Shown one piece after another: positions 36,340 to 60,879 of a stretch of DNA of 64,000 nucleotides. The position numbers and the translations under genes are program-made. Location: NCBI GenBank assembly GCA_023105745.1, contig JALGQZ010000002.1, positions 77,417,285 through 77,481,284 of the forward strand. Direction: 5' to 3'. Source of the DNA: Austropuccinia psidii. Lineage: Eukaryota; Basidiomycota; Pucciniomycetes; Pucciniales; Sphaerophragmiaceae. The notes beneath the pieces are model-generated. The model made no database searches, was not told the DNA's origin, and saw only the letters and a list, made by a program, of their open reading frames with translations. Each line of letters begins with the position of its first letter. Position 1 is the first letter of the stretch.

Positions 36340-36465
36340 GGGGAGTGATATTTCCACGCCTACGCCTATGCATAAGATTGTGGATTCAGATACGCCTTCA
36401 CGCCTTTCATGGATGTAGTTTGCTAAATCCACGCATCCAAGTGATTACTAAATCCACACCCCCAT
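36340..36465 (+). repeat. Left terminal inverted repeat of the MULE
   Basis: It pairs with the reverse complement of 60745-60879. Shared blocks are GGGGAGTGATATTTCCACGC, GATACGCCTTCAC, CATGGATGTAGTTTGCTAAA and AGTGATTACTAAATCCAC. Relative to the right end it lacks about 19 bp just after the first 21 bases, including one TACGCC hexamer. Confidence 0.92.
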
Positions 36466-38575
36466 TTTTTTTAATCGAAAAGAACTATAATTTCACAGTT
36501 ACCCACTTTCAATTTTGATTTTCATATGAGTCTCTAAGAAAAGTTTTGATAGCTCAGCATATGTCAAAGTACTTGCTAAAGTTGTTCTTACATGAAAAAA
36601 TAACCACCATAAGGACAGGAAAATAAAATCCAATCAGTGATTTGAATGATTAAAAATGTACACACCTTGCCAAAGTACGCTTCCTCTGTTGTACCTGTAA
36701 TTCATAAATATAAAATAAGTGGTTCTAAATTTTTCATTAAATAAAACTTCTTATGAATTAACATACCCTTTGCATGTTTATCTCCACTGTATCAGGTGAT
36801 ATAAAATGGTATTCCATTACATTTTTCCTTTGTCCAATACAATGTAGACGATCAATAGCTTGATCTTCAGCAGCTGGATTCCAATGAGGCTCCTAGACAT
36901 ATATGAGATATATAGATTATATTAAAATATTGCCTCATGGTCATATAATCATAATTCATACCATTATAAATACCACGTCTGCACAAGTTATATTCAGGCC
37001 AACCCCTGCAGCCCCTATTGAAGCCACAAGTACTCCTACATTTCTGTTTTCCTTGAATTTCTTGAGTTCTGCTTCCTGTGTAGCTTGGCCTATTGTTCCG
37101 TCAACACGTGTAAAAATGATCTTATTGTTTTCTAAGACAATTCCAATCTTACCAGTTTATCACAAATAATTGTCAATCAAAAGCTTCATAATTATCAAAG
37201 GAGAGGTACAAAGCAGAAGTTTAATAGACAAAATAAGGGAAATAACCCAACTTACAAATCAAGAAATGTTGTAAACTGTGAAAAAATCACTGATTTTGGG
37301 GTTGAATTTTTAATGTTTCGGCGTGATAAAAGATTTTTCAGGAGCCTCTGAATTTTAGTGCTTTGTCGACATGTTTTGACATCAACATGTTCTGTTATGG
37401 TACTATTAAAAAAACCCCCTTCTATCTTTGTCCCATATGGTGAGATTATACCTTCAATGTCATATATAATTTCACTAAGCAAGTGATGATTGCAACAAAG
37501 GCGAAGCTTGTTTATATACTTGAAGAACATTTCTGGGCCTTGATTAGATGATGATATGAACTCTTTGTAAATATCATTATATCTATCTAACGTCCAATCT
37601 GAGAGAGGTTCATGGATATAATCATGATTAATTTCAGGTAGATCATTTAAAATGCGGTCCTTGTTTCTTTGTAGACAAAGATGCCTCAGGCATAACTGAA
37701 GGGGGCTATAATTTCCTTTTTTGAGCTCTTCCAATATATTTGGTACCCAATTCTCTTGTTTTTCACTTTGAGGTGCTGTAATGAAGGTGATTAGGCTCAT
37801 TAAGTCATTTATACTGTTTTGAATAGGGGCTCCTGTCAGGAAAATGCGTCTGGATGTTTGTATTGCCTCAATTGCTTTGAAGAAAGTTGACTCCTGACTT
37901 CTTATCTGACTAGGTATGTCAATTTAATTTATATATCATTCATCAGAATTCCGCAATTTATAAATAATAATTTGAAAAACTCACTGGGCCTCATCTAAGA
38001 CAACTCGGTACCATTCACTATGGTAAATCCAAGATTTTTCTATATTATTAGGCTTACCAAACTCATGAGCTAACAAATGATAGCTGGATATTACAATATC
38101 AGCTTCAGACCATTTTTTCAGTCCAATCTCCTTTCTTTTCTTCCCATGATAGGTGACAATCTTTAGTCGGGATATGTCTGTATGTAATTTTAATTCATTT
38201 TCCCAACTCTTTATGAAACGAGGTAAGCATATTATGAGTGTGGAGTGTTTTTGTTTTTTATTAATAAAGTGAATGGATGGTGGAATATCTCTTCTGGAAT
38301 CTTCAAGAGTCATACATATGAGTGATATGCACTGAATTGATTTCCCTAGTCCCATGTCATCCGCAAGCAGACAGCCCAAGGGAGTATGGCTGAAGGTGTC
38401 TTCGAGGTTATTTACTTGCTTCTTTGTGATTCTATGTATCAAATTCATTCTTGCAGATGAGGATGATGGTTTACTTAACCACAGAGAGTTTGCCAATTTT
38501 CCATTTGGGGCTTCTCTATTTAGGAGAAATGCTAATCCTTGCTTTTGATGAGACTTGAGTGATGATTTTAGGAAT

Positions 38576-38580
38576 GGTAT
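38576..38580. repeat. Left target-site duplication of element D
   Basis: GGTAT, repeated exactly at 48234-48238. It falls in the SNF2 coding exon. Confidence 0.9.
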
Positions 38581-39991
38581 TGTCAGGCTGAGTCTATATT
38601 GAAGTGGTAATAAGAGTATTTACAGCTAGAATTATGACTGTGACACGTGGAGAATTGATTAAAAATAAGAGTTTTTGATTTTAAAGATGATTTATAATAT
38701 ATGCAAAGGGTTCTACTATTGGAAAACAGTGGTGGTGAGCGCTATTGAGAACCCAGGGTGCAATCTTACCAGTTGAGTTACTATAATAAGAGTTACAATA
38801 ATTAAATATATAATTATACCTGTTTATTACCCAAGAGTAAAACTGTTTTTGACAGTTTACTACGTAGGGTATTCAAAAGCAGGATGAGGAAAGGCTTTTG
38901 GCTGTGAAAAGCCCTCCTTTTATCCTAAAATTGAGGTGGAAAGGCTGCTAGACCTTTCCACGTAGAGGAAGTGAAGATTTTTCACTCTCTATGACAGGCT
39001 TGTGGTTTGCAAACAGCCTGTATACCCTTTATTGGGCTCAGATGTGGTTTTGAAACCACATCTGGGCAGTTTTCACCAATACAGGGTGAAAATTTTCATC
39101 TGGGGACCTCACAGCCTGATTCTGACGTGTATGACGCGTAGAATGCTGTACAGAAACTGTATAGGACCCCAGTATTGACTGAAATATGAGGTATTGAAGT
39201 AAAAACATGCTTCTTGGTCTATTTGACACCTCATATTCATGGTTATGGGATATTATCCCATGGTAAGGCTGTATCTGACAGCAGGTGGGATTTTGACCTT
39301 AAAATGGTCATAACTCTGTCACGTTTTGAGATATCAAGCTCATAGTTGGTTCATTGAATAGCTCTGTATGGGCTCTACACAATGGTACCCAACTTGACAT
39401 GGTTATCATTAAATATGACAAAGTTATCCCATGTACAAGTATTTTTGTACATTGGCGTGGTCTGGGCAAAAGCTGTATTAAGCTTGTTTGGCCAATAACT
39501 TCTGTTGTAGTTGAGCTATGAGGAAATAGATTGCACCATCAGATAGCCCTGATTGTGCTCTTCCCAAAAAAAACCCACTTTAGGTATCTCACACTAAAAC
39601 TTTAAAAGTTAGATGAGAGGTGAATGTTTTGTTCACCCTTATTTGGTCTGAATTTGACCATAACTAAAGTAATACTGGTGCTAGCTCAGTTTGGCTAGCA
39701 CCATTAGATAGCCCTGGCTTAGAGCTTCATTCTGAATACCCATTTGATGGGGTTAAGCCTCTCCTTATAGATTTTAGATGAGAGGTGAAAATTAAGGTTT
39801 ATGCTCAGCAATAACTTTGAGCAGGAATAACTTTGTTATTTCTTGTCCCATGGTGATGGGACTTATATTTTCAGAAAGAGGTGAGTTTCCTCTTTCCTCT
39901 GATACCTTTTGGGCTAATTTGGCTCAGCTCCATGTTTTGGTGGTATTTTGGCTGTCATGCTTGTGCTCTGGTTTTGAGTCACAGGCTGACA
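38581..39991 (-). repeat. Element D 3' LTR
   Basis: 1,411 bp. It lacks a 27 bp stretch (present near 48168-48195 in the other LTR) that lies between copies of ATTTTGGCT, the pattern of a deletion between short direct repeats. The shared inverted repeat is at 39039-39064. Confidence 0.92.
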
Positions 39992-40003
39992 TACCCTCCC
40001 TCT
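39992..40003 (-). other. Element D polypurine tract
   Basis: Minus-strand AGAGGGAGGGTA directly abuts the 3' LTR. Confidence 0.75.
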
Positions 40004-40015
40004 AAAAAAGGCTCA

Positions 40016-43000
40016 TCATTGATGAGACTGTTCAGTCCTCCTAGAGGCTCTGAATCTCCTTAGATGAAGGTTCCCATCTGGTATGGCATCTTCTGCCAAC
40101 CATTTGTCTTTGTCAGCTGTCTGGTTCTTGAATCTAACTAGATATTGTCTCTGATCCTTCCCATTAAGTCTGATTTTTCTGGCCCTGATGATTTTACTCA
40201 CAGGTCCAGGAGAGTCTTCTACTTCCACTATTTCTGGTGGAGTGATGTTTTTCTTCCTGGAGGGGAATTTATCCTCCTCTGTTTGGAAGTATGGTTTGAC
40301 CAGGCTTACTGGAAAGACTGGGTGTTTCCTAGAAAACTCCTCAGTGAATTTGACCTCTACTGCATTCTTCCCTATCAACTTAATGATAGTGAAGGGCCCT
40401 ACAAATGAGTCTCTCATCTTCTTGGGTCCTTTGAGATTGTTAAAGTTTAGTGTAGACACTAACACCTGGTCCCCTTCCTTGAAGTCAGGTTCCATATGTG
40501 ATTTGTCCCACCTCTGCTTGTTATACTCTTTGGCCTCAGCTATGCATTTGGCAGCAGTATCACAGGCTTTCTTCCACATATCATGGAAGTCTTTGGCTGT
40601 GGGGTGGATGGTCAGAAGATTTTTCTTCAAGTGATCCACAGGTAACAGGGGATTCCACCCTTTCTCTACCAGTGCAGGTGTTTTTCCTGTGGTAGAGTGC
40701 TGGCTTGTATTATAAGCCAGTTGGACTGCTGGTAAGAGGGTGACCCAATCATGGGTGTATCCCTCATGGTCCTTGTATTCCATGCCATAGGCACAGAACC
40801 TCCTGAGGATGTCCTCCATTGTTTGGATCATCCTCTCAGCTAGGCCATCTGTTTGTGGATGGTAAGCTGTGGAAAAAGCAAGCTTGGTGCCAAGCATGTC
40901 ATATAAATTGGTCCAAAATTCAGATGTGAATTTTGGGTCCCTGTCACTGATTATGATCTTAGGGACTCCACAGGTGGATATGATGTTATTCCAAAATAAC
41001 AGAGCAGTGTCCATGGCTGTGTCCTCTTTATGGCATGGTAGACATCTCATGCTCTTGCTGAACCTATCAACTATGATTAAGCAGGCATTGTAGTTTTCTT
41101 TGCCTCCTGGGACAAGTCCTGTGACCCAGCCCATGTTGATGGTTTCCCATGGGTGTTTGGGTTCTTCTATGTGTTGAAGCAACCCATATTTCTTCCCATG
41201 CTTTCTATTTGCCTTTTGGCATCTTTCACAAGTGTTGATGTATTCACTCAACTCTTGCTCCCACTTGGGCCACCAAGCTGTGCTTGCTACCCTCTCTTTA
41301 GTCCTGTCTTCACTCATGTGTCCCATGTAGGGGCAGTCATGGCATTCCTGCAGGATTAAAGAGATGTGGTCTCTGTCTATCACTGTGAGTGCACTGGTGT
41401 GCTTGTCTCTGTGATAAATCAGGCCATCTATAAGGAAGAATTTATTGTCCTTATAGGCCCTCAACCAGGGTTCCTCCAGCTGGGTTTCCAGTTCTGGGCT
41501 CCTGTATTTTTGTTGAAGGAGTTGGAGTAGTATGCTACACTGTTTGTGTTTAGCATATGATTTCAGTACTGCATTGAAAAATTCATTGTGCAGTTCTGAG
41601 GAACTTATTCCCAGTATGGGGGTTTCTGTCCCTTCTGCATCAGTGTTTCCACTGTCAAGGGTACCACTCCCTGGTGCCCATTCAGAGAATCTGAAGTTCT
41701 TCTTCCTATTTATTTCCATAAAATGGATAGGAATTTTTGCAGCAACTTCAGGGCCATAAGCTGGATTGCTTTTGACATTATCCAGTGGCCATCTGCTAAG
41801 GCCATCTGCATTGGTATGGCTTTTACCTTCTTTGTATATGATGGTCATGTTCCCTCTATACTCCTGGATGGCTATTTGCCATCTCATCATGTGTCTATTA
41901 GTAGTCTTCATGTTTAGTAAAGACTTCAAGGCTGTGCAGTCTGTGTAGACTTCAAAGACTGCACCCTCCAAATAATAATGGAGTTTTTCTAGAGCCCAGA
42001 CTAGACATAGACATTCAGTCTGGGTGGCCCCATACCTGGCCTCTGAATCTTTCAGTTGCCTAGAGATGTAACATATTACACCTTCTCTTGGTTCACCATC
42101 CACAATTTGTCTTTGGTGAAGGGCTGCTCCCAAGCCTTGGCTGCATGCTGCATCTATATATAACTTGAATGGTAGTTCAAAGTCAGGCAAGATCATCACA
42201 GGTGCATTTGTGAGTTCATATTTGATCCTCTCATATGCATCCCTCCTTTCCTTGGTTATTTCAAAAACTACATCCTTTGAGCATAACTTGTATAAACTAC
42301 TAGTTATGTGGGCAAAGCTCTTGATGTGGTTTCTATAGTAGCTAGCAAATCCAAGGAAAGATTGCATCTCTTTGATGTTCTTTGGTACTGGCTTTTGCAG
42401 TACTGCTGCTACTTTGTTCTGGTCAATTGCTAGACTAAGTCCTGAGACTTTGTGTCCTAGAGCTAGTAGCTCTTGTTGGCCAAAGTTACACTTTTTAAGT
42501 GAAATTTTCAGATTGATGGGTGTACATTTACTTAGCACTCTGTCTATGTATTGTACATGGTCTTCCCATGTCTCTGAGTATATAATGATATCATCAATAT
42601 ATACTACCATCCAGCCTTCCATTATTTCTTCTTGAAATATGGTGTCCATCATCCTTTGGAAGTGGGCTGGTGCATTCTTGATGCCAAATGGCATCCTGGT
42701 GTACTCATATATGCCCATATGGCATATTATTCTGAGCAACTTCATGGAGTTTGGTTTAACTCCATTTTGGTGGAAGCCCTTCATACAATCCATCTTGGTT
42801 ATGTATTTAGCTTTGACCAGCTTATCCAGGGCATGAGGTATCCTTGGTATAGGATACCTGTCTGCTTTTGTGTAGTTATTCAGGGCTCTGAAGTCTTTAC
42901 ACAATCTAGACTTGCCATAATGCCAGGTGATTAGGACAGGAGTGGTGATTTCCACTATTTCATTATGTCCAATCTTCCTGATGACATCCATGTCCAGGAG

Positions 43001-45871
43001 TTCATTGATGTGTTTTTCAATTTCTTTCCTGGTTTCCAGACTTGCTGGATAAGGAGGTCTCTTCAGCATGGGTGGATAAGGTCTTTCCACATCCAGATAT
43101 AGTTCTATATCATGGCCTTTAATCTTGCCTAGTGGCTCTTCACCAATGGCAAATGCTGGTCTGTTCTTCCTCAGCATCTTCAGTAAACTTAGTTTTTGTT
43201 TACTGGTGAGGGTAGTGCTAAACTGTCCCTCCCTGAATTCCTTCAAGAGTTCTTCTAGTGGGTCCTGTGAAGATATGTGGTATATATCAAGTGAAAATTT
43301 CTTTTCCTTGTTGGTACCAATGGTAATGTGCCTGTTTTTACTGTTGTAAATATCTATGCCATACATCCTCTGGTAATCTGTTCCCAGTAAAAACCCTTGG
43401 ATGTGGGCATCTTCAAGCACTACAAACTCTGGGTTGAGTCTGATATTACCCTTCCTGTGGGGTATAATTATCTCTTTGATAATTGTCCCAATGGAAGTCA
43501 TCTTCCCTGATGCACTTTTGAAGTCCCTTGCCTTAGTGGGCAAGAGCTGCTTTTCCCAGTTTGGGAAGTGGTTATCCAGATAATTTCTGGCCACTATGGA
43601 GCGATGTGCTCCACTGTCAATGATCAGTGGGTGCTGAGCATTGTCAATACATACAGTCATTTTTGTGGCTGTTCCATGTATATATGCCATTCCTTTGGTT
43701 GGTGTAACCAGGAATGTTTGTGCATCTTGTGTGTGTTTGCACAAGTTCTTGTTGGCAGTGTCCTGTGGCATGCCTGCTTCCAACTGTATATCCTGGATTT
43801 CCAATGGGGTTTCCTCTTGGTATTCCACTAGAAATTCCTCTCTTGGGTCTTGATCATCATCAGATGGTTCTCTGATGGCATCTCCCATAGAGTCTGATTC
43901 AGAATCCTCTGTTGGAGGTTCTTCTTCAGGGACTTTTTCTATAGCATAGACTTTTTTCTTTTCTTTTGGATAGTTGTTGGCATAGTGGTCTGTTGAACCA
44001 CAATTGTGACAAGAATTCTTCTTCTTTGCCACTTCTGCCACTCTTTCTCTGGGTTTGTCTTTAAACTCTACCCTGAAAGGTTGTTTCTCTTTGAAACTAC
44101 TGCTTCTATATGGGGTGAATTTCCCTATATTAGTCCTTTTCCTTATGTCTTGTAAGGTATTGGCTATGTCATCTAGAGTGCAATTTTGGTTGCATCTGCA
44201 TTTCACTGCATGCTCTAATTCTCCTGGCAGTTGTGTCAGAAGTTTGTGATTCCTCATCTGGATGTTCATCTGAGGATCAATGGCTTTAAGTCTTTTAGAC
44301 TGTCTGAGACACCACTCATATGGATCTTTGTCCGCAGAGTATTTGTCATTTTCAAATGACATGGTCTTTTGCCATATCCAAGTTCCATTACTGTACTTTT
44401 GGATTATTTGACTCTTCCACCATGGCCAGTTCCTTCTGCCATGGATTTCTTTCATTTCTGTATACCATATACTTGCATGACCTTTAAATGCAGTATTCAA
44501 TCTAGCAGTAATCCAGTAGTCTGGTATGCTTGGTACATCAATGAAGAGTCCATCAATATAATCTATGAGTTCCATATGATCATATTCTCCTGATCCAGAG
44601 AATTTGGGCCAGTTTGAGGCCTCAGGAATCTGTTTCAAAGCTTCTTTCTCTGAATAAGACATGCCATCTCCATCCTGGTATTGTGATGGAGATCTTGCCT
44701 TATTCAACAACATGGCATCTGGTTTGATGTCATCTGGTTGATATGGATTCTCCATAGCTTGGCCTTGTGGTTGGGGCTTTAAGCTATGGTAGGCATTAAA
44801 CAATTTGTTAATGTCTTGATCCAGACACTCCCTGTCCCTTGTGCTGTGGTGTTGTTCTTCAAAGACTTGGTTCAGTCTTTTGTTGGATTCTTCAGAGGCT
44901 TTGCTCAGTTGAGCATATCCTTCTTGAAGATTCTTAACTATTTGTTCCAAGGAGGCTTGAGTTTGTCTCATCCTCTCTTGGCTAGCTTTAATTTCTGCAA
45001 ATTGCTTTGCAGATTGTTCAGCATATTGGGACACTTGTAACCACAGTGTATCACTGTTGATGTTACTCTCAGATGTGACAATGTTATTTTCAGTCTGAGT
45101 GGGGGTAATGTTTCTATTACTAGGACTACTGATTCTAGAGTGGTTTACAACTACTTCTGGTTCTTGTGTACTTCCTTTACCAAATACAACAGCTTCTGGA
45201 TCATGGGGTCTGACTCTTTCCTCCTCTGGTTGAAGGAGGTTTTGTTCTTGCCCTTGTTTCCTTGTCTTCTCCTGGAAACTTCCTGGAATTGTGAAGAATG
45301 GTGACTCTTGGCCACTGATCTGCTGGTGTCTGAATGGTGTGAAGCCACTGGAGGGTTGATTTGGCCTGCTCCTTGTGAACCTGAAGGAATCTGAGTAGGC
45401 CCTGTCTGGGCCAACTGTTCTTCTATAGCTAGGATAGTGGCTTGATTCTCCCTTATCCTCTGTGCCCTTGCCTCCAGGAGTCTGTGCTGCCTGGTAGGAT
45501 TCCAACCCTTGGTGATTACCATAAGGTCTTTGAAGTATATCTCTTTGAGACAGATCTTCTGGCACATTGATCCCAGTTCTGCCCAGTGAGTTGCTAGGTT
45601 GAACCTCTTGTTGTCCATGCTCCATTGAAAGAAATCTTTGAGGAGTTGGTGGATCTGAAGAACTTGATCTATATCCTTCCAGTCCTCTGGTTTGAGGTTT
45701 CTGTTGAATTGGAGTGTGAATGGCAAGGTTGATATTATCTCCCTCATTGTTTTGCCATCCACCACTGTGTCCAGGGTGTCCTCTTTCAGGTCTTCTGGTT
45801 CTGGACAATCCTCCTCTATCCTCTGGCTGGTTCCTTTGGAAGCCAAGGTCTCTGAGATATACAGGGGACAT
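40016..45871 (-). CDS. Element D Gag-Pol polyprotein, full length but with damaged catalytic residues
   Basis: An uninterrupted frame of 1,951 residues, the longest in the window. Order: Gln/Arg-rich N-terminus (1-240, overlapped by the spliced ORF), coiled-coil-like stretch with [18 protein letters not shown] (about 290-370), Gag core (about 420-600), zinc knuckle (621-634), aspartic protease DSGAHRS (about 753), reverse transcriptase with YIDD (about 1090), RNase H (from about 1235), integrase HHCC finger (about 1500-1545), catalytic core, and chromodomain-like tail (about 1880-1940). Two key residues differ from elements A and C: the last knuckle Cys is Tyr634 ([14 protein letters not shown]), and the first integrase Asp (NMDWVTG) is Gly1581 (codon 41129-41131). 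The second Asp (SDRDPKF) and the Glu (ERMIQTME) remain. The protein should therefore be translated in full but be integration-defective. Confidence 0.92.
45151..45851 (-). CDS. Element D overlapping spliced ORF, 3' exon
   Basis: Open from the acceptor (TATCTCAG, exon edge 45851) to the stop at 45151, wholly inside the N-terminal quarter of the Gag-Pol frame but in another phase. It carries the conserved [20 protein letters not shown] and [13 protein letters not shown] segments. It is colinear with exons in A, B and C. Confidence 0.6.
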
Positions 45872-45919
45872 ATCAGTGTTTGCAAGCAGTCAAAAACTTT
45901 ATGTTCTTTGGGTATTTAC

Positions 45920-46200
45920 CTTTGACTGTGCCTTGTACAAATTTACTGTCTGCTGACTTGGGCAGTTTGCCTTTGGAAGTTACAACTGGGTTAATAATTG
46001 TAATTTTTCCTGTACAAGTGGCTAAGGTTGGTTTACCTTGTATGGATGCAGAGTTTCGTGGTTTTCTACTTCTCTGGGTGGCTATTGGTGTCCACTTCTT
46101 GGCTGTGATGAGACCTTCACTGTGCCTCTTTCCTTTTGCCTTGCTGCCCTCTGGTTCTGAGGGTGTGACTGGGTCTCAAGTGGGATGTAATTTTCTTCCA
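45920..46200 (-). pseudogene. Element D overlapping spliced ORF, 5' exon with 19 bp deletion
   Basis: Matches the 300 bp exons of B and C but is 281 bp, missing 19 bp near 46165 between copies of GTGTGAC or GTGAC. The loss shifts the frame, so only the part downstream (KKWTPIA onward) is in phase with the 3' exon. The donor GTAAAT lies at 45914-45919. Confidence 0.6.
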
Positions 46201-46795
46201 CTGAAATCAAGGCAGAAAAGGGAGGACTTATGTCAGTTTAGACTTCTTAAAAATGCTGGTTTTGCACGTCTAAGATTGGCCTCTTGGCTTGTATGTTACT
46301 ACAATGTGCCCTGTATAATGACAGTGTAATTGAATCAACAATTTCACGTCAGAATTACAGCTTTTGGTACCCTGTCACACTGTTTGTGTGCCAGTATCCC
46401 ACAGATACACTTGTGGTTTTCAAGTGTATTCTGTACAAGTGGTTTTGTATAAGTGTTATTGAGTTAACAATACACTTATTCCACGCCTCAACTGATGGTT
46501 TTTCAGTCAGAGGTGTCCTTATTCAGTCAAGAATACAGGACTTTATTGATGGCTTATGTGTTTTTATATACCAAACACGCCAAAAATATATAAATTCAGT
46601 GGGTATTAGCCACGTGATTAATACTCTTATAATATGAGTATATATAAAAAAGGATAAATATATATAAAATATATATTCAAATAAAGAAATTACGCCTAAA
46701 AAAAGATAAAACACTTGGTTAATAAGTCATAAAGAGAGAAAAGACTTACTTATAAGGTCCAATAAGAGATTTAAAACACGGCCAGGCCCCCAAAA
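46201..46795 (-). other. Element D leader with primer-binding site
   Basis: The primer-binding site, minus-strand TGGGGGCCTGGCCGTG, is at 46777-46792. The leader is AT-rich and contains the splice acceptor of the spliced ORF at its downstream end (TTTCAG at 46201-46206). Confidence 0.65.
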
Positions 46796-48233
46796 TGTCA
46801 GGCTGAGTCTATATTGAAATGGTAATAAGAGTATTTACAACTAGAATTATGACTGTGACACGTAGAAAATTGATTAAAAATAAGAGTTTTTGATGTTAAA
46901 GATGATTTATAATATATTCAAAGGGTTCTACTATTAGAAAATAGTGGTGGTGAGCGCTATTGAGAACCCAGGGTGCAATCTTACCAGTTGAGTTACTATA
47001 ATAAGAGTTACAATAATTAAATATATAATTATACCTGTTTATTACCCAAGAGTAAAACTGCTTTTGACAGTTTACTACGTAGGGTATTCAAGAGCAGGAT
47101 GAGGAAAGGCTTTTGGCTGTGAAAAGCCCTCCTTTTATCCTAAAATTGAGGTGGAAAGGCTGCTAGACCTTTCCACGTAGAGGAAGTGAAGATTTTTCAC
47201 TCTCTATGACAGGCTTGTGGTTTGCAAACAGCCTGTATACCCTTTATTGGGCTCAGATGTGGTTTTGAAACCACATCTGGGCAGTTTTCACCAATACAGG
47301 GTGAAAATTTTCATCTGGGGACCTCACAGCCTGATTCTGACGTGTATGACGTGTAGAATGCTGTACAGAAACTGTATGGGACCCCAGTATTGACTGACAT
47401 ATGAGGTATTGAAGTAAAAATATGCTTCTTGGTCTATTTGACACCTCATATTCATGGTTATGGGATATTATCCCATGGTAAGGCTGTATCTGACAGCAGG
47501 TGGGATTTTGACCTTAAAATGGTCATAACTCTGTCACCTTTTGAGATATCAAGCTCAAGGTTGGTTCATTGAATAGCTCTGTATGAGCCCTACACAATGG
47601 TACCCAACTTGACATGGTTATCATTAAATATGACAAAGTTATCCCATGTACAAGTATTTTTGTACATTGGCGTGGTCTGGGCAAAAGCTGTATTAAGCTT
47701 GTTTGGCCAATAACTTCTGTTGTAGTTGAGCTATGAGGAAATGGATGGCACCATCAGATAGCCCTGATTGTGCTCTTTCCAAAAAGACCCCACTTTAGGT
47801 ATCTCACACTAAAACTGTAAAAGTTAGATGAGAGGTGAATGTTTTGTTCACCCTTATTTGGTCTGAATTTGACCATAACTCAAGTAATACTGGTGCTAGC
47901 TCAGTTTGGCTAGCACCATTAGATAGCCCTGGCTTAGAGCTTCATTTTGAATACCCATTTGATGGGGTTAAGCCTCTCCTTCTAGATTTTAGATGAGAGG
48001 TGAAAATTAAGGTTTATGCTCAGCAATAACTTTGAGCAGGAATAACTTTGTTATTTCTTGTCCTATGGTGATGGGACCTATATTTTCAGAAAGAGGTGAG
48101 TTTACTCTTTCTTCTGATACCTTTTGAGCTAATTTGGCTCAGCTCCATGTTTTGGTGGTATTTTGGCTATACCATTGGTTTATGGTATTTTGGCTGTCAT
48201 GCTTGTGCTCTGGTTTTGAGTCACAGGCTGACA
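46796..48233 (-). repeat. Element D 5' LTR with putative promoter
   Basis: 1,438 bp. A minus-strand TATA-like GGATAAAAGG is at 47131-47140. Palindromes are at 47254-47279 (CAGATGTGGTTT arms) and near 47460 (ATGGGATATTATCCCAT). Confidence 0.9.
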
Positions 48234-48238
48234 GGTAT
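48234..48238. repeat. Right target-site duplication of element D
   Basis: GGTAT, identical to 38576-38580. Confidence 0.9.
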
Positions 48239-48453: not shown

Positions 48454-49276
48454 CTGAGGAAAACAAAAAAATAAACATTACTATTGGAATAGTGATGCTT
48501 ATCTTGTTGTAAAGGTTAAACTTGAGAAAGCTTTTAATGAATACTTTCTGGTTGGGGTTTTTCTCTAGATTGGTGTGCCACATGCCAGAAGGACCACAGG
48601 ATATAAAGAAATTGGGGTCACCCAATAATGGTACAAGTGCAGAGCTGACATCCAGAGGAAGGCTACCCAAAGCTTCTCTTTGATGTCGTGTATACAAGAA
48701 TAAATTTTGACTTGTATGACATAAGAAAATCTAATCATCCGGAAGAAAAGGTTTCTGAATGGGATTAGTGAGGCGTACATGGGTTTTCAATATCCCAAGG
48801 CAATAAGGCTTGGAAGAATCCATATTTCTAAAAAAGATTCAGTTTGATCTTGACAGGAATGAATGGTAAATGCAATGAACTGGAGAGCAAGAATATATAC
48901 TAAAGTTATTTTGATACTAATCAGGCCAGCTTGTGGTTTGCAGTTACTATTTGTATTATAAATAGAAACACGCAAGGTTCAATAAAAGATTGTTTGGAAA
49001 AAACAGCTCAATTTAGAAAGGCAAGGAAATTTATTCTTGGATATGTAAATATAATTGTATCAAGCTCTGAATGAGAAAAATCTTTCTATTCAAAGTCCTG
49101 ACTTCAAACAGAATACATGAAGCAAATTCCTAAGGATACTTAAGGACATATATTTCAAGAAAGTCAACAAAGGAAAATATGTACTCAAGTTTGCATCAAC
49201 CATCCCATTTCATGCATAAGTATCCTAGTCTAAGGTTGAAAAGCTACATCAAAAGAAATGGTAAATTACAAGAAAT
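48454..49276 (-). other. Unresolved 5' part of the SNF2 gene and spacer to the dioxygenase gene
   Basis: A splice acceptor (TTTTCCTCAG) ends at 48454. Further upstream, an open minus-strand reading (HQREALGSLPLDVSSALVP and following, 48600-48697) looks coding and probably belongs to an N-terminal SNF2 exon, but its donor and the start codon could not be fixed. 48980-49276 shows nothing. Confidence 0.4.
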
Positions 49277-50687
49277 TTATATATTTGAAAGCTTCATTTT
49301 TTTTGGTTGATGTCTTTGCTTTTCATTTTGAATCCTTTCTTGACGTCCATATGTTTTCTCTTCTTGGGTTATTGGATCCATACATATAAGGCTTTTAGCT
49401 CTTGAATATAGCTTGGAGTTGATTTGGAAAGAACATCCAAAGTGAGTTATGGTAGGAAGTTCATCAAAAATAGGAGGTGGCTGAGTGGTCTGGTGAAAAG
49501 TGGTTGAAGTTTTCCAGAGAAGCTCAATAATACCTTGTTTGCGAGAAAAATCCAAAAGTGTGGAGTATTCAGGAAATGAGAGGCCATAGCCACAGGAGAG
49601 GATGGGAGATGGAATTGGTTTTATGCCTGATTTGTCAAAGAATGTGAACAAATCATAAGTCCAAGTATTCTTGTCCTTCTCATCTCTATGAACACAATTA
49701 TGAAAACCATTTGTTGTTATGATCACATTGGAGAAAGACCATAATTTTTGGTGGAACATTGGATTCCATTCACCTTCATGCCATTCAGATAGCTGGGCTT
49801 CTTGCATGATTTCATTATTCTCACGGGCAGCAGACATAGAAAGAATCTTGATGCGGGAGGAAACAAAATTTTCAAACCAAGAAAGGGTCATCCATTCTTC
49901 ATTATCTGCGTCTAATACTTCTGGATTCATTGTGGTCTTCCTGGCATAAACACCTAGTAAAAGGAGAATAAAATTAACAAAAAACTTGAATATAATTTTC
50001 TAAAGACTCACCTAAGGATTTACCACTATCACTTCCACAGCGAAATCCAACTCCTTTCATATGGCCATCAATGAGATCACTATTGGATTTAATATGAGGA
50101 TGATTTTGGGCTAATTTGTAAAGTGATATTATTAATTGATTTAATGAAGTGAAAGTTGGAGAAGGAATATGAAATGGATGCAAGTGATAAATGAAGAGGG
50201 GCTTGTGATTTTTTGAATTGAAAACAATAGAAGGATTTGGTGTTTCATTTATGGAAGGTAATAAAAGCTTATTTATTCTATTTTGCTTGGGCTTAACTGG
50301 AACTGTACTGAATTTGCCTCTGCTTCTTGATGCATGGTCCAAAATTTGGGTGAGTAATTTTTGTGCAATTTGAAATCTTCTATGCGAATGATTAGATTTC
50401 TTATTTAGAGATGAGTCATTTTTGGATAAGGGGGAATCATTCACAGCTGGTGAAATAGTCCTTCCCATGGAATGATCCTCAGAATGCAAAAAAGACTCAT
50501 CCTTTCCATTTGTGCTGTGTAAGCTTGAGTTTCGAAGGGTTTTTGGATGCATTGAGTCACTAATTGATGAAGAAAAACCATTTACAACTGGTGAAATAGT
50601 CCTTCCCATGAAATGTTTTTCTTCATCATTAAGTGACTCCATACATTTTGGGAGCTCAATGAGTTGGTATGGTGACTGTTGATTCAT
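49277..50687 (-). CDS. TET/JBP-like 2OG-Fe(II) dioxygenase
   Basis: Two exons, 50012-50687 and 49277-49953, joined across a 58 bp GT-AG intron (49954-50011), give 450 residues with no stop. Family members oxidise methyl groups of 5-methylcytosine or thymine in DNA, using Fe(II) and 2-oxoglutarate. Seen here: the entry motif GVGFRCGSDSGKSLGVYA created across the splice; NGFHNCVHRDEKDKN, with the iron-binding pair His314 and Asp316; a GIIELLWKTSTTFHQ block offering His379 as the distal ligand; and a basic C-terminus (QRHQPKKMK). The N-terminal 225 residues are Ser/Asn/Lys-rich and contain two copies of a GRTISPxVN motif (about residues 28 and 76). An upstream in-frame ATG at 50777 would add 30 hydrophobic, AT-encoded residues; I prefer 50687. 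Among the element's four genes this one has the cleanest frame. It matches the Tet-like oxygenases expanded in basidiomycetes; activity is inferred only. Confidence 0.8.
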
Positions 50688-52194: not shown

Positions 52195-53631
52195 GGGTGT
52201 TGGTAAACACACGTAAGCTTTTAGTAAAAACACGTAAGCCCTTACGTGTTTTTACCAAATTATGGCCAAAACACGTAATTTTATGGTAAAAACACGTAAG
52301 TAACCTAATTTTTTTATAAAAATTCCTCAGGCTCATTTTTGAGCATTTTTAACATTTTTTTTTGCCATATTTTTTCCGACATGGGATGTGAAGGTCCCCA
52401 AATTTTTTCAAATTTTTTTTTTTTGCCCAATTTTTCTATTTTGGGCAATTTGGTAAAATGGCCCTTTTTTTTGAAAAAATTCATTAAAAATGTTCCCACT
52501 TATGGATTTGAATAATTTTTTTTTAAAATGAAGGTGAGAATGTTGAGAATAATAAACCAGAAGCCCAACATTTTGGTATTTTTTTGAAAGAACATTTGTA
52601 GGCCCAAAAAGTCCATGTTTTTTGATGTTTTTTTGTTCATGTTTTTAATTAAATTGAAAATGCCATTTATGACATAAATTGAATTCAAAATGTAATTTAT
52701 GATGGGTGGAGGTTAAAGTTTGATTTTTGGCATTAACAGTGCCATTTATCACATCAAAAGTGCCATAAATGGCATCACTAATGACATAATAATGCCATAA
52801 ATGGCATCAAGAATGACATACAGATGCCATTTATGGCCAGAAAATCGGCATAAATGGCATTAAAGCAATGCCATAAATTGAATTTAATGGCCTTGACAAT
52901 GCCATTTATGCATTTAAAAATGCCATAAATGGCCTTAAAAATGGCATTAATGGCCTTAACATTGGCCTTAAAAATGGAATTAATGGCCTTAACTATAACA
53001 TAAATGGCATCAAAAATGCCATTTATGGAATCAAAAATTCCATTTGTGGCATTACATAAATGGAATTAACAATGCCATTTATGGTGTTACATAAATGGCA
53101 TTATGCCATTTATTGAATTGATAATGCCATTCATGGAATTAGTAATGCCATTAATGGCATTGTTAATGTGGCATTATTAATGCCATTTATGGCATTAATG
53201 GCATCAGAAATGTTGCATTTTTGATGCCACAAATGGCATTAATGGCATCAATGATATTTCATTGATAATGCCATTAATGTCACAGTTAATGCCATTTATG
53301 ACACTGTTAATGCCCTTTATGACACTGCTAATGCCACTTATGGCACTGTTAATGCCATTAATGGCATTGTTAATGCCATTAATGGAATTAATGGCATCAG
53401 AAATATTTCATTGATAATGCCATTAATGGCACTGTTAATGCCATAAATAGAATTTTTAATGCCACAAATGGCATTAATGGCATTATAAATGCCATAAATA
53501 GCCATATTTCATTTAAAAACCATCCCTTACGTGTTTTTACCATAAAATTACGTGTTTTTACCAATTGATGGTAAAAACACGTAAGTTTTTAGTAAAAACA
53601 CGTAAGCTCTTACATGTTTTTACCAATACCC
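52195..53631. mobile_element. Nested 1.4 kb non-autonomous TIR element
   Basis: Termini of about 100 bp, GGGTGTTGGTAAACACACG on the left and the inverse of GGGTATTGGTAAAAACATG on the right, built from TAAAAACACGTAAG subrepeats. They are flanked by an exact 8 bp duplication TTTAAATA (52187-52194 and 53632-53639). It has no coding capacity beyond short, composition-driven ORFs. It inserted into the hairpin array. Confidence 0.85.
52730..53510. repeat. Degenerate AATGCCATTTATGGCATTAA satellite inside the TIR element
   Basis: ATGCCAT and its complement ATGGCAT alternate dozens of times, making most of the segment self-complementary at many registers. No fixed unit length could be set by eye. Confidence 0.7.
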
Positions 53632-53639
53632 TTTAAATA

Positions 53640-54380: not shown

Positions 54381-54385
54381 CGCTA

Positions 54386-56595
54386 CTACACCTTTTGAAT
54401 TTCTTTGTCAATACCAACCATTTTAGGTAAGTTCATGATTAAATTAGACTCCAAAGGGTGTTTTTTTTGCCATGCCTCACTAAAATCCAATGCTAAATAT
54501 TCTGCAAGGCGGTATTTGCTTGGGCAAATTGGTGAAGATGAAGGATTTGAGAAAAAGCTTTCATGAAGGATTTCATATATATACTTGTTTGTGCGCTTCC
54601 AAATATCTTCATCTGACAAGGATTCTTTTCTCTTGAGCATTGATGTAATTTCCAGAAGCTGAAGGGTCCCTTTCGCTGAACTAATGTGGTAATCAGCTGA
54701 GCACACCAGAAGTCCACGTACACCCCCTGTAAAGAATGCTGCAATCAGATTGTAGCATGGCCTTCCAGCCTTCATCTGATCTTGAATGGTCACCAATGCT
54801 TGCAAAGGATCCACTCCTCTCTTGACCAATTGCTTTCCAATTTTCTGAGTAGTTTTGGAATCAACCTTAGTATGCGCCTGCACCCAATTAAATGCAATCA
54901 TCAGCTGGAGGATATTATTGACCAAGCCAGTCAAAGTTGGTGTAAAAATTCCCTTTGATGTGATAGTAGTACCTTCTTGACTTTCATTGCTTTTTGGAAC
55001 TAGTTGAACCTTGTTGACACTCAAACAGGAGCCTAAATATTGCATAGCACTAATTTCCACAGACAAAGAATCACTGGAAGCTGAATCAGAAATATTGAAT
55101 GTAACCGGAGGGTTCTGATCATCCATATAAAGTGCAATGGCTTCAAACAAAATGTTGGCGACTTGCTGCTTTTGATGTTGACTTGGTTGAACAAGATTGT
55201 GCACCAATAGATACAGTGCATGGAGCCTCTTGGGTAAACCTGCCAGTATGGACATGTCACTTTGAAATAATGACATATTCCAAATTGACTCATAGATTAA
55301 CGGCTCCTCAGATATTGGTGAAAACAGATCTAAGCCTATGAAAAAATGAGATTAGTGAGATACCAATATATATATTTCTGAAATCCTGTTTACCAGCTGC
55401 ATGGAGCTCTTCAAGCCACTCTTTCATTCTAATGTCCCTACCACTCTTGTAGCAAATCCCACATTGGAGCTTGGTCGGAAGTTCATCCTTTGGAACAAGT
55501 GATTTGCGCTTCATGAAGGTCATTTGAATGAGCGAATTAAATTTTATCCAATCTTCCCTTTTGAAGACATGATATGACATTAGAATGTAATCAAATTTGT
55601 TTTCATTTTCCAATATAATTTTCATGCATGAAGGACTTTGGGTTAGAGTTAGTGAACGAGCAACTGAATCCATTGATGGGTCAGAATTTGTTTGGGTCAA
55701 TACAATTTCATCCTCAGCCAATGTTCTTTGAGTTTCTGTACCGATATTTTCATTGGGAACAGTAGTTTCTTCCTGAGTGTCCAAATTTGGACTTGGAACA
55801 ATGTTTTCATGATGATTGGTTACACCTCCAATCTCAGGAATTTCAACAGGGTGATCATTTGTGGTGTTTATTTGATTTCCATTATTACTTTCATTACCAG
55901 AAGGACAAAGAGCCCCTGATTCCCCCTCATTAACTTCAGGGGCCAATTGAAAAGTTCAGCAAATTTTCTTTTTTGCTTGATTCTTTGAAGGTTTAAACTT
56001 CCTTTTTGAAGAAATGTTTGTCATTGTACCAATTTTAACATGTGATTCGGGAGGTAGTGTATTGCCCGATTTGACCCCTAAAGTTATAATTCCAAGATAT
56101 TAGGGTGGAATGTGAAATATATGAGATAGCAATTTTTTATACATACGATCAATATCAGCAACCAGCAGTTCTCTAGCCTCCTGGAGCTTCTCTTGTACAT
56201 ATTGAGGAATACGTGCATCTTTGGACATTTCTTCTAATGTTGGGGCTATTTGTGATGAATTGTTCAAGAACTGTTTCTTTGTAATCACTTCTATTTCAGC
56301 CCCAAAAAGCACCTCAGTAGATATTTCGGTGGAAGAAGCCCAATGAGCATGGGGTGCCTCTATGTTGCTTTTGTGCATTATTTCTGATTAATTGAGATAC
56401 TGATAAGACTGATTTGATCAGAAGTAAATTCCATTCAAAAAACATACCTTCTGGCAATTCTGGAGGTGGATTTGGGATGGCTGTACTAATTGAAATGATA
56501 ATTTCACTTGATGAGAACTCCATATCAGAAGATTTGGGAGAATTGAATTGCTTTTGAGGACCCATATCAGAGTTGTTAGTAGTATTGGCATCCAT
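54386..56595 (-). pseudogene. Unrecognised four-exon gene of the MULE, with one internal TGA
   Basis: Exons 56448-56595, 56147-56383, 55394-56077 and 54386-55335 have consistent GT-AG junctions. The lengths sum to 2,019 nt, an exact 673 codons, which supports the model. A single in-frame TGA lies at 55956-55958 in exon 3. The N-terminal half is Ser/Asn/Glu/Thr-rich and probably disordered, with a lysine-rich patch (KRKFKPSKNQAKKKI) just before the TGA and a CGIC motif. The last 300 residues look folded and helical (GLPKRLHALYLLVHNLVQPS, IGKQLVKRGVDPLQALVTIQ, AFFTGGVRGLLVCSADYHIS). I recognise no domain and infer no function. It may be an accessory transposition protein or captured cargo. If the TGA is suppressed or is a sequencing error, the gene would be intact. 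Confidence 0.65.
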
Positions 56596-57541: not shown

Positions 57542-60500
57542 TTGAAGCCCTACAACCTTCCACCACCTGAATGCTTGACCTCTAGAATGGAATCATTACA
57601 ACCCATTGAAGCTATGAATCTTCATGAATCTGGGACAACTCAGTTTAAAGGTGATATTGAGGAAATAAAATCATCTATACAGGCCACTACTCATTGCACA
57701 CCTGATTTTTCAGTCCCTAATTAACAATTCCCTCTCATTACCAACCCAGATCAATATGATTACTCCACTGGACGTAAGCTTACATATATTTCCATTCATC
57801 CACTACACTTTTACTGATTTGAATAACTATATAGTGAAATTAGAACCACCTCCACTTGCAAGGTTCAGTGATGTAGATACCCTCATCCAGTTTGCACAAA
57901 AGTGGGCTAAAAGTCATGGCTATGCATTAACAAAGAAAAATTCTCACCAAGGGAAGAACGTTTACTTGGCATGTGACCAATATGGTGAATATATAAAACT
58001 TAAAGGACCTACCCAGAGGCAGTCAACAACCAAAAAATGTGGATGCAAGTTTAGGCTCAGAGGCTCTATTCCTGCTCTGAGTAAGTCATCAAATATACTG
58101 TACGTATTTACTATGTTCTTACCATTAAGGTGATATCAATTCTGGGGAAGTTCACACAATTCACCTCACCAGATCTGGCTATTGGGTTTTAGTCCCACTA
58201 GAAATTCTGCACAATCATCCACCCTCTACAACCCCATCAGTACATCCCATTCATTGTTGGCTTAATGAAAAAGAACTTTTGCAAGTTGAAGGATTGATGA
58301 AGGCAAATGTCCGTCCTAATCAGATTTTAAGCCAGCTTTATTCCCAAGGAAATACCTGTACCACTAGCAGAACTCTGTATAACTACAAAGGACATCTATC
58401 AATCAAGGAAAGGAATGGTCAATCTCAACTGGAATATCTAATACGTCTTCTGAAAGAGAGCAATTGGATTCATAGTAATAAAATTAATATAAATGGAAAG
58501 ATTACCAACCTATTCTTTGCACACCCAGACTTCATTGAATTGGGTCATATAAACCACCATGTGATATTGATTGATGCCACTTACCGGACATGCAAGTACA
58601 ATTTGCCACTTTTCCACATGGTTGGCCAAACTGCAACTGGACACACCTTCTCATTAGCCTTTTGCTACATGGAACGGGAAAATGACGATCGATACATATG
58701 TGCCCTTCAAGAACTCAAAATGTTATTTCAGCCACCCAGAATTCCCAAGGTTATTATCACAGATCGTGAGCCAGCTCTGAAGATGGCCATTGAATTGGTC
58801 TTTCCTAGCTCAATCCATAATTATTGCACATGGCACATCAGCAAAAACCTTATCCAAAATTGTCACAAATATTTTCAAGAGGATGATTGGAAGGATTATC
58901 AGACATCCTGGAACCTACTGGTCAGTTCCAAGTCAACCGAGAAATATGAGAACAATCTTGAAAAAATCAAAGAGAAGTCAAAAGATTACTCAGGAGCATG
59001 GTCATATATCTCAAGCAACCTACTCCCATTCAAGAAAAAGTTTGTCACTGCTTGGGCAAGCCAGCTCCTGTGTTGAATCTGCACACTCATAAATAAAATC
59101 ATTTATTAATAATTCCAATGGAGAGCTTTCTACAGTATTCCAAAATTTCAAAACAGCAATTGATATTCAATTGAAACATATCCACCATACTATGGGAAAA
59201 GAAAGAGTTCAAAAATTGACTGATGTTTCCCCACCTTTCAAGCAGCTACTTGGCACTATATCAATAAAAGCAATAAAAATTATTGAAGACCAATTTCGAA
59301 AGCTCAAACACCAACCAAATCTTCAGCCATGCTCCAAAACACTAACTAATGGCATGGGGATTCCTTGCTCACATGAAATTTAGAAACTTCTTAATACTAA
59401 AGGCTACATTGGAAATGAAGATTTTTATCCACAATGGAATCTACTTTATAATCCTCTTGAAGTAGGTGACATCTTATTTCTGATATGTGTGATTGTGGTC
59501 ATGCTAAAATCATGTTTAACAGGACCATGATTCTAATTCACAATGGAATTTGAAACAACAAATGGAAAAGATTGAAAAGGAAGTTGATGAGCCCGAAATA
59601 CCATTACAAAAAAAATTGATCAAGCAAATTCAGGAGCTACTTAGCTTTCAATACACAACCATTAAGCTTTGTCACCCCAAAAAGGCTTTAATTTCACGTG
59701 GTAGGCCATCACTAAAAACGAAAAGGGTAAAATCTACCAAAAGGCTTCCATCCAATTTTGAAATCGAGCAGGATATCCTGAATTGTCACAAAAGATTTCT
59801 TAAAAAGATGCACAGAGCTACTATTGGTCCCAACACTCAATTTATGAGGGGGAAAAGTTCTATTTGATGAAAAAAGAGGCAAGCCAAGATGATGAAACTA
59901 CCACAAAAAGAAAAAGAAAACTATTAAATGATATTGGAAAATTGGAAAGAAACTTGAGACCCCAAAATAACTCAAATTGTTTGGAAGAACCAGTGAGTGG
60001 ATAAAATTTGATATGCAAATGAATAACTGAAAAATAACCTCCTTTTCAAAGACTCTCTATATTGATCAGATACAGCCACCTTTCATGCACCAGTTCATTG
60101 AGAAAATTTTTAATCCTCCTGCAGATGGGAATTGTCAATTCCATGCAGTGGCAAAAGGATTGTCACTTTCAAGCCCACAAAAGGAAAAGAGCTGGAGAGA
60201 AGTGAGACAAGATTTGATAGAAGAAATTGATAGGAATCACAATTATTACAGCCAAATATTGGGAGGAGCAGTGGAAATGGATAAGATAAGAGATAATCTG
60301 ATGGCTACAGCTATTACAAGAATGGATAACTGGTTAAGTAAATGGGATCATGGACCAATATTGACAAATACATATAAGTGTCCATTTGTATTTTTCCATC
60401 CAGATTGGCAGAACTTCCCACCACAAACATTCCTTCCAACCCTATTCAGTCCATGTGGAGTTTCAATTATGCATCCAATCTCCCTAGGTCACATAAATGG

Positions 60501-60675
60501 TAATCATTGGATACTCATCATTTTCAATGAACATGAGATAGGAAAATTACCTCTTCCCAAATTTCCACCGCAGTGGCCCGGGGCACATTCACATCAATCA
60601 GCTTCAAATTGGAGAAGAGTATATTCCTCATCAATAAAATTATTCCGCAAATGTAGACAGATCACTTGTATATAA
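57542..60675 (+). pseudogene. MULE transposase with FAR1-type and SWIM-like fingers and C-terminal OTU domain
   Basis: Model: about 57542-57773, 57835-58080, 58130-59461, 59523-59992 and 60052-60675, with four introns of 49-61 bp. Domains: FAR1-type DNA-binding region (FSDVDTLIQFAQKWAKSHGY, KKCGCKFRLRG); helix-turn-helix-like segment (LMKANVRPNQILSQL); MULE DDE core with LIDATYRT and ITDREPAL and the NYCTWHISKNL block; SWIM-like finger (GMGIPCSHEI); a RGRPSLKTK linker; and an OTU cysteine protease domain with ADGNCQFHAVA (Asp, Cys) and GNHWILI (His). Transposases of this class bind terminal inverted repeats and cut and paste DNA. Lesions: TAA 57722-57724, frameshift near 59070, TAA 59090-59092, TAG 59381-59383 and a frameshift near 59860. 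The start codon is uncertain. The gene reads toward the right terminus 70 bp away. Confidence 0.85.
60085..60675 (+). other. OTU-like cysteine protease domain of the transposase
   Basis: The last exon, joined by an intron (59993-60051) to the upstream linker, encodes an ovarian-tumour-type fold: DGNC with the nucleophile Cys, and NHW supplying the catalytic His near the C-terminus. The spacing of about 130 residues is normal for the family. OTU enzymes remove ubiquitin; fusion to MULE transposases occurs in some lineages. The reading frame of this part is intact. The element's other exons could in principle have decayed while this domain remained open by chance. Confidence 0.75.
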
Positions 60676-60744
60676 CATTTTTTCATTTTAGAGTTTTTTG
60701 TCAAATTTCTGAGATAAAAATCTTATAAAAATCTTATTTGGCGT

Positions 60745-60879
60745 GGATTTAGTAATCACTTTGATGCGTGGATTTAGCAAACTACATCCATGAAAGGTGT
60801 GAAGGCGTATCTGAATTCACAATTTTATGCGTAGGCGTAGGCGTAAGTTTTAGGTTAAGGCGTGGAAATATCACTCCCC
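60745..60879 (-). repeat. Right terminal inverted repeat of the MULE
   Basis: It ends GGCGTGGAAATATCACTCCCC, is complementary to the left terminus, and carries extra TACGCC hexamers near 60827-60845. Confidence 0.92.

What the first reader, a model, noticed from the sequence alone, without database searches (positions are those of the whole stretch)
36340..60879. A MULE-type transposon carrying TET/JBP-like dioxygenase and SNF2 ATPase genes
Inverted termini, an exact 8 bp TSD and a MULE-OTU transposase define one mobile unit. Inside are a DNA-demethylase-like 2OG-Fe(II) enzyme, a chromatin-remodelling ATPase and an unknown gene. Fungal TET/JBP expansions are known to be linked with KDZ transposases; a MULE-type carrier with both a TET-like and a SNF2 gene may be an undescribed class that opens or demethylates its own targets or source copies. 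The structure is seen directly; the functional reading is inference.
Basis: partly seen in the sequence, partly recalled or inferred. Interest (0 to 1): 0.92.

Follow-up and report, generated by a model that had tools for sequence, protein, structure and literature searches.

The report
Rust transposon with demethylase-like, remodeller genes
A large multi-copy jumping gene family of a rust fungus carries its own TET-like (DNA-demethylase-like) gene and a chromatin-remodelling gene beside its transposase, a combination that could help it escape the host's DNA-methylation silencing, although that function has not been tested.

Summary
The unit 36340-60879 has matching inverted termini and an exact 8-bp target duplication. 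It encodes a FAR1-MULE-OTU-like transposase, a PF20515 TET-like dioxygenase, an SNF2 ATPase and an unknown gene. The 24.5 kb is inflated: a 9.65-kb Ty3 LTR element sits inside the SNF2 gene. The transposon proper is about 14.9 kb; in this copy only TET is uninterrupted. The source is Austropuccinia psidii or a close relative. In its 1.0-Gb genome the arrangement recurs: 96 of 150 scored TET hits have the SNF2 gene nearby, all on the same strand (0.8 expected by chance); 81 of 126 MULE hits have TET in inverse orientation (0.7 expected). Of 11 copies with both ends read, 10 show an exact 8-bp duplication. The family bears CpG/TCG mutation of the kind described for rust repeats. Kojima (2025) lists seven rust transposon lineages carrying TET; MULE is not among them and SNF2 is not mentioned. 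I read this as a new carrier and a new gene pair in a known kind, resembling trypanosome JBP2 (TET/JBP plus SNF2) but with separate genes. Anti-silencing is the likeliest role, untested.

The parts
36332..36339 (.). target-site duplication TATTATTT, left
   Evidence: read directly; matches 60880-60887
36340..36460 (+). left terminal inverted repeat (lacks 19 nt present in the other arms)
36800..38580 (-). SNF2-family ATPase gene, 3' part: exons at about 36800-37156, 37255-37923 and 37984-38580 (exon ends approximate)
   Evidence: PF00176 and PF00271; interrupted at 38581 by the LTR element
38581..48233 (-). nested Ty3/gypsy LTR retrotransposon (not part of the MULE unit), LTRs 38581-39991 and 46796-48233, 5-bp duplication GGTAT
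   Evidence: RT, RNase H and integrase domains; LTR pair 95.8%
48239..48838 (-). SNF2 gene, 5' exon part (approximate end), cut off from the rest by the LTR element and holding one in-frame stop
   Evidence: six-frame reading compared with copies C5 and C9, which read through
49277..50687 (-). TET-like 2OG-Fe(II) dioxygenase gene, predicted intron 49954-50011, reading frame open
   Evidence: PF20515 1.1e-20, intron and frame, active-site residues
51050..52200 (.). AT-rich spacer with repeated CTGGGGCT/AGCCCCAG hairpins; the motif occurs 1-22 times in each of the 15 copies' stretches
   Evidence: counted over whole fetched stretches; copy C7 has only one
52198..53626 (.). apparent further insertion bounded by inverted repeats (CTTACGTGTTTTTACC...), filled with GGCATTAATG-type repeats (8 motif matches here, 1 in copy C4, 0 in the 13 others)
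54386..56560 (-). unknown gene (several exons, upper end approximate; C-terminal exon 54389-55351); one in-frame stop in this copy
   Evidence: 29 of 29 homologues of the C-terminal exon from A. psidii; relatives P0055/P0059 read through
57587..60675 (+). transposase gene: FAR1-type region 57801-58097, MULE core 58129-59073, C-terminal part 59520-59864, OTU-like 60031-60672; frame broken near 59.07 kb and by later stops in this copy
60740..60879 (-). right terminal inverted repeat
60880..60887 (.). target-site duplication TATTATTT, right

Best explanation
Shown: this is one damaged member of a multi-copy family of MULE-type DNA transposons. The four copies read with all four genes between both termini are 12.3-13.9 kb long, with ~140-bp CpG-bearing inverted termini and 8-bp duplications. 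The family carries a recurrent set of four genes: SNF2 ATPase and TET-like dioxygenase in tandem, an unknown gene, and a divergently transcribed FAR1-MULE-OTU-like transposase. Inferred: the TET and SNF2 proteins form a self-encoded anti-silencing module. The SNF2 protein would open or strip host chromatin on silenced copies so that the dioxygenase can oxidise 5-methylcytosine there. That would keep the element's promoters and CpG-bearing termini usable by the transposase and slow C-to-T decay. The module would act in trans on family copies until each copy decays.
For: Same gene order and spacing across the genome: TET with SNF2 within 15 kb in 96 of 150 hits, all same strand, 83 of them about 1.6-1.7 kb apart; MULE with TET in 81 of 126, 80 of 81 in the same divergent order; terminus hits near TET in 33 of 40. 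Exact 8-bp duplication in 10 of 11 copies. None of the 25 longest inverted-repeat pairs listed encloses TET except the outer termini. TET keeps the H, D and H of the iron site in 15 of 15 copies scored, and pooled pN/pS of its second exon is 0.71 against 0.94 for shuffled changes, below all 60 shuffles. The family is a target of methylation-type mutation: CpG transitions in 98 of 858 cells against 132 of 15676 for other cytosines, TCG 20% of 218 cells. A. psidii methylates CpG, more in younger transposon families (PMC12774611, passages). In trypanosome JBP2 the SNF2 part is thought to give the TET/JBP dioxygenase access to chromatin (PMC10057400, passages).
Against: No activity, expression or 5hmC data. 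The TET residue that by my alignment (TET2 motif recalled) matches the 2-oxoglutarate-binding arginine is histidine in 15 of 15 copies, so activity is not assured; of 6 MF-1 homologues that cover the distal iron histidine, 2 (P0001, P0004) have tyrosine there. The second SNF2 exon shows no constraint (0.89 against 0.96) and neither does the MULE core in 5 copies (0.99 against 0.98). The family still suffers heavy CpG decay. 5 of 10 copies have lost the MULE core. 31 of 150 TET hits have neither partner listed, and 66 of 150 have stops (my count). The structure prediction for TET failed (pLDDT 34).
Confidence: 0.62

Rival explanations
1. Passenger cargo: a MULE captured TET and SNF2 (pack-MULE style) and they hitchhike without serving the element.
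For: No constraint on the second SNF2 exon (0.89 against null 0.96); copies lacking most of SNF2 and the MULE core exist, for example C2m and C4.
Against: Multi-exon genes in a recurrent order in dozens of copies; TET frame free of stops in 84 of 150 hits (my count); TET exon and first SNF2 exon below all 60 shuffles for pN/pS (0.71 against 0.94; 0.66 against 0.80, lowest shuffle 0.69); TET repeatedly kept by other rust transposon lineages (Kojima 2025).
Confidence: 0.2
2. Helper for the transposition step: TET and SNF2 change the methylation or nucleosome state of termini or AT-rich targets, so that cutting or insertion improves, rather than lifting transcriptional silencing.
For: Termini carry many CpGs with fewer transitions than the body (9 of 160 against 89 of 698 cells, Fisher p 0.009); duplications are AT-rich.
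Against: Cells from related copies are not independent; no binding or methylation data.
Confidence: 0.12
3. The TET gene belongs to a different transposon nested in the MULE by chance.
For: TET genes in rusts ride on seven other transposon lineages, and nested elements are common in this window.
Against: Near-constant spacing to SNF2 and termini in many copies; none of the 25 longest inverted pairs listed encloses TET alone.
Confidence: 0.02
4. The TET-SNF2 pair acts mainly on host genes or other transposons, as a general epigenome modifier.
For: In mushrooms oxidised cytosine is also found over retrotransposons (discussion of Kojima 2025).
Against: No host-gene or expression data either way; the genes stay inside the transposon in the copies read.
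Confidence: 0.04

Closest known systems
TET+ DNA transposons of rusts, PU type (Kojima 2025, PMC12730594)
   Same: TET/JBP dioxygenase inside a DNA transposon of Pucciniales (A. psidii included); HxD; multi-copy; proposed anti-silencing role
   Different: Described carriers are Dileera, hAT7, Harbinger/PHISTA, IS3EU, EnSpm, ESTA and Helitron; MuDR/MULE is not among them and SNF2 and OTU are not mentioned in the main text
JBP2 of trypanosomatids (PMC10057400)
   Same: A TET/JBP dioxygenase works with an SWI2/SNF2 ATPase that gives chromatin access
   Different: One fused host protein acting on thymine, against two neighbouring transposon genes of untested substrate
Mutator-like elements with anti-silencing genes: plant Vandal MuDR; Phytophthora MuDR with SET genes (as cited in PMC12730594, passage)
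   Same: MULE-type transposon that encodes a factor against its own silencing or an epigenetic enzyme
   Different: DNA dioxygenase plus SNF2 instead of a VANC-type factor (name recalled) or a histone methyltransferase
DNMT5, SNF2-methyltransferase fusion of Basidiomycota (PMC13297926, passages)
   Same: SNF2 coupled to a cytosine-modifying enzyme; the first SNF2 exon here matches RAD5 best and, weakly, a chain deposited as Rad8 (7r76, E 0.0015), which I take to be DNMT5 (recalled)
   Different: DNMT5 writes methylation; here the partner is a putative eraser; the second SNF2 exon matches CHD4/SWI-SNF-related chains best, so the subfamily is open

Membership tests
Mutator-like elements (MULE/MuDR) | MULE-type DDE transposase domain | tested here: met
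   PF10551, 92 bits against cut-off 27.6; two aspartates of the motif (recalled) kept in 5 of 5 copies scored
Mutator-like elements (MULE/MuDR) | long terminal inverted repeats | tested here: met
   ~140 bp, 87-98% identity to the window's right arm
Mutator-like elements (MULE/MuDR) | target duplication of about 9-11 bp (figure recalled) | tested here: not met
   8 bp in 10 of 11 copies, just outside the usual length; a variant trait, so the filing as MULE-type rests on the transposase
Mutator-like elements (MULE/MuDR) | position in a tree of MULE transposases | not tested
   30-36% identity to the 8 other MULE loci fetched from the same genome; no tree made
TET+ DNA transposons | TET/JBP gene between transposon termini, recurrent | tested here: met
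TET+ DNA transposons | carrier is one of the seven described rust lineages | tested here: not met
   transposase is MULE; list from PMC12730594; its supplement was not readable
TET/JBP dioxygenases | TET-like profile | tested here: met
   PF20515, 75 bits against 27; P0001, P0010 and P0011 also
TET/JBP dioxygenases | HxD...H iron triad | tested here: met
   15 of 15 copies scored; 2 of 6 MF-1 homologues have Y at the last position
TET/JBP dioxygenases | 2-oxoglutarate-binding arginine | tested here: not met
   histidine in 15 of 15; position assigned from the recalled TET2 motif, so uncertain
TET/JBP dioxygenases | oxidation of methylated bases | not testable with these tools
   needs an assay
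SNF2 ATPases | both helicase lobes with the classical motifs (motifs recalled) | tested here: met
   PF00176 and PF00271; motifs I and II in 10 of 10 copies scored; motif VI is changed in the window and C5 copies and standard in C9
JBP2 | dioxygenase and SNF2 fused in one protein | tested here: not met
   separate neighbouring genes, hits about 1.6-1.7 kb apart
OTU proteases | OTU profile above cut-off | tested here: not met
   0.0018, 19.2 bits against 23.3; best PDB match E 0.18; catalytic D, C, H kept, so OTU-like only

The most novel reading that the evidence does not exclude
The element carries a mobile eraser unit that mirrors the host's writer. Basidiomycetes keep CpG methylation with DNMT5 (an SNF2 motor plus a methyltransferase). 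This MULE pairs an SNF2 motor with a TET dioxygenase, and an OTU-like protease on the transposase, to strip methylation and repressive chromatin from its own copies. It would be a JBP2-like partnership invented by a transposon.
Probability: 0.4. Interest if true: 0.88.

Novelty: new variant of a known kind. Interest (0 to 1): 0.74.

Why it matters
Why rust genomes swell to a gigabase although they methylate transposons is open. Here is an abundant transposon family with a plausible built-in counter-measure, in a species whose CpG methylation has already been mapped (PMC12774611). Copies with and without open TET and SNF2 genes form a natural experiment: methylation and decay can be compared directly. 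It would also add an eighth carrier lineage to the rust TET story and another case, besides JBP2, of a TET/JBP enzyme travelling with an SNF2 motor.

Tried and rejected
Rejected: (1) the unit as one 24.5-kb element: a Ty3 element is nested in it. (2) TET in a separate nested transposon: near-constant linkage. (3) Single-locus accident: refuted. Led nowhere: AlphaFold of TET (pLDDT 34) and of the unknown gene's C-terminal exon (pLDDT 43), so no fold search was made; PDB profile searches of TET and the unknown gene; SNF2 subfamily (RAD5, a helicase-like chain and RAD54-like chains best for the first exon, CHD4 and SWI/SNF-related chains for the second). OTU in other MULE families of this genome: 3 downstream frames tested, none matched. 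One MULE hit without a listed TET: the 5 kb where TET was expected held no family gene (L035); one locus of 29, inconclusive. A genome search with the unknown gene did not complete. The genome has no relatives held, so no other rust could be searched. Limits: each genome search scores only its best candidates (150, 150, 126 and 40 rows), so counts are lower bounds and the lists are cut at different identities. Partners were taken within 15 kb (TET-SNF2), 30 kb (MULE-TET), 40 kb (MULE-SNF2) and 25 kb (termini). For pN/pS only matches covering 90% or more of the query were kept, codons with stops were left out, and pairs share ancestry.
Full report
What is there. The termini at 36340 and 60879 match as inverted repeats and are flanked by TATTATTT on both sides. 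Pfam confirms a MULE transposase core, a Tet-like 2OG-Fe(II) dioxygenase and an SNF2 ATPase with a C-terminal helicase lobe; the OTU call is weak but the residues of its catalytic motif (recalled) are kept. It lies inside the SNF2 gene: in copies C5 and C9 the same gene runs uninterrupted through that point. Without it the unit is about 14.9 kb. The cut-off 5' part of SNF2 also holds an in-frame stop where C5 and C9 read on. The transposase frame of this copy breaks near 59.07 kb, with stops after it, where relatives P0012 and P0021 read on. The unknown gene has one in-frame stop. TET is the only one of the four that reads uninterrupted.

Where it comes from. All 11 TET homologues, 18 of 19 MULE homologues (the other is from tea) and 29 of 29 homologues of the unknown gene's C-terminal exon come from Austropuccinia psidii MF-1. 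The window's assembly has 1,015,390,075 bases. In MF-1 the unknown gene and the MULE bear consecutive tags (O181_052924 and O181_052923) and both are listed with a contig of 6479 bases, so they are neighbours there too.

It is a family. TET exon 2 has 150 scored matches (77-95% identity apart from the window itself; 6453 candidates); by my count 84 of 150, the window included, have no stop. I fetched 20 kb around the 10 best other hits: 10 of 10 have the left terminus, SNF2 sequence (a short piece in C2m and C4), TET and at least part of the unknown gene; 9 of 10 have the right terminus within the fetched stretch. Four of 10 (C5, C7, C12, C4m) hold all four genes between both termini in 12.3-13.9 kb; some frames are broken, for example SNF2 in C7. 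C15m holds SNF2, TET, unknown gene and MULE, but its right end lies beyond the stretch. Five have lost the MULE core by internal deletion (C1m, C2m, C3, C9, C4; 7.0-9.1 kb). Four lower-ranked hits (ranks 35, 79, 103 and 146) gave the same picture: three have the left terminus and SNF2; for the fourth that side was not fetched, but the unknown gene and MULE are there. Two SNF2 hits without a listed TET both carry the left terminus and a truncated TET.

Genome-wide linkage. Of 150 TET hits, 96 have an SNF2 hit within 15 kb, all 96 on the same strand, 83 of them at about 1.6-1.7 kb; random placement gives 0.8, at most 4 in 200 trials. Of 126 MULE hits, 81 have TET within 30 kb on the other strand and none on the same strand, 80 of 81 in the divergent order; random 0.7, at most 4. 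97 of 126 have TET or SNF2, 59 both; 29 of 126 have neither, and 26 of these 29 are below 90% identity. From the TET side, 58 of 150 have both partners and 31 neither. Of 40 terminus hits, 33 lie within 25 kb of a TET hit, 35 near any of the three genes and 5 near none; random 0.3 for TET.

Termini and targets. Of 11 copies with both ends read, 10 have an exact 8-bp duplication; C1m does not. Two of the 10 are homopolymer runs, which is weaker evidence. Targets are AT-rich. The termini carry repeated ACGCC motifs.

Constraint. Pooled pN/pS against a null that shuffles the same classes of change (60 shuffles): TET exon 0.71 against 0.94; first SNF2 exon 0.66 against 0.80 (lowest shuffle 0.69); unknown gene C-terminal exon 0.40 against 0.81; OTU part 0.46 against 0.87; transposase C-terminal part 0.26 against 0.74: all five below every shuffle. 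Second SNF2 exon 0.89 against 0.96; second unknown-gene exon 0.85 against 0.89; MULE core 0.99 against 0.98 (5 copies); FAR1 part 0.86 against 0.84: within the null (dN/dS medians). Single diverged pairs of TET lie inside their own nulls. Much of the divergence is therefore post-insertion decay, with modest constraint on top.

Methylation signature. In the left 4.7 kb of 10 copies, CpG sites show transitions in 98 of 858 cells, other cytosines in 132 of 15676; TCG reaches 20% of 218 cells. Rust TCG hypermutation is described in the discussion that I read in PMC12730594; CpG methylation of younger transposons in A. psidii in passages of PMC12774611. CpGs in the termini show fewer transitions (9 of 160 against 89 of 698), but cells from related copies are not independent.

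Mechanism. Shown: a multi-copy transposon family with a recurrent four-gene set, hit by methylation-type mutation. Inferred: TET plus SNF2 lift silencing of family copies. The nearest worked example is JBP2, where the SNF2 part is said to let the dioxygenase reach chromatin and mutation of it inhibits de novo base J synthesis (passages of PMC10057400). The first SNF2 exon matches RAD5 best and 7r76 (deposited as Rad8; DNMT5 by recall) weakly; the next exon matches CHD4 and SWI/SNF-related chains best. Cautions: the histidine at the presumed 2-oxoglutarate arginine in 15 of 15 copies, also in the distant P0010 and P0011, and tyrosine at the distal iron histidine in 2 of 6 MF-1 homologues that cover it.

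Novelty. PMC12730594 (abstract, methods, sections 3.1, 3.2 and 3.4, and part 1 of 2 of the discussion read) lists seven rust carrier lineages; the find call gave 0 hits for MULE, SNF2 and OTU and 2 for MuDR, both in one introduction passage. Its supplement could not be read. Searches for other reports (listings only, apart from the papers named) showed none of a MULE with TET and SNF2. Passages of PMC12774611 and PMC12210899: 0 hits for MULE and Mutator in either; MuDR 0 and 1. I file it as a new variant of a known kind.

Noticed in passing
window 4125-14211: A young Ty3 LTR retrotransposon with LTRs 99.5% alike (4125-5625 and 12711-14211).
   Followed up: no
window 14710-26963: Further, partly inverted copies of the Ty3 family that is nested in the SNF2 gene (96% and 88-89% alike).
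   Followed up: no
window 535-2614 and 61578-63590: A 2-kb inverted repeat pair, 73% alike, near both ends of the window.
   Followed up: no
window 27319-29416: Minisatellite arrays (46 and 75-76 bp periods), C-rich on the + strand, with two open frames of 145 and 171 codons.
   Followed up: no
window 52198-53626: Inverted-repeat-bounded block of GGCATTAATG-type repeats, 8 motif matches in the window copy, 1 in C4, none in 13 others; probably a third insertion in the MULE.
   Followed up: partly
window 51050-52200 and L009-L032: CTGGGGCT/AGCCCCAG hairpin motif 1-22 times in each of 15 copies' stretches, once outside the element in the window.
   Followed up: partly
L017/L018 and L027/L028: Two copies on different contigs share what looks like the same internal deletion: most of SNF2 and the MULE core lost, TET and OTU part kept, a likely non-autonomous subfamily.
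   Followed up: partly
L009-L032, TET exon 2: Histidine in place of the presumed 2-oxoglutarate-binding arginine in 15 of 15 copies of this TET family, the window included.
   Followed up: partly
G000:C7:50.6-51.7 Mb: Four SNF2 hits of identical score and identity within about 0.8 Mb (a fifth similar one nearby), suggesting segmental duplication.
   Followed up: no
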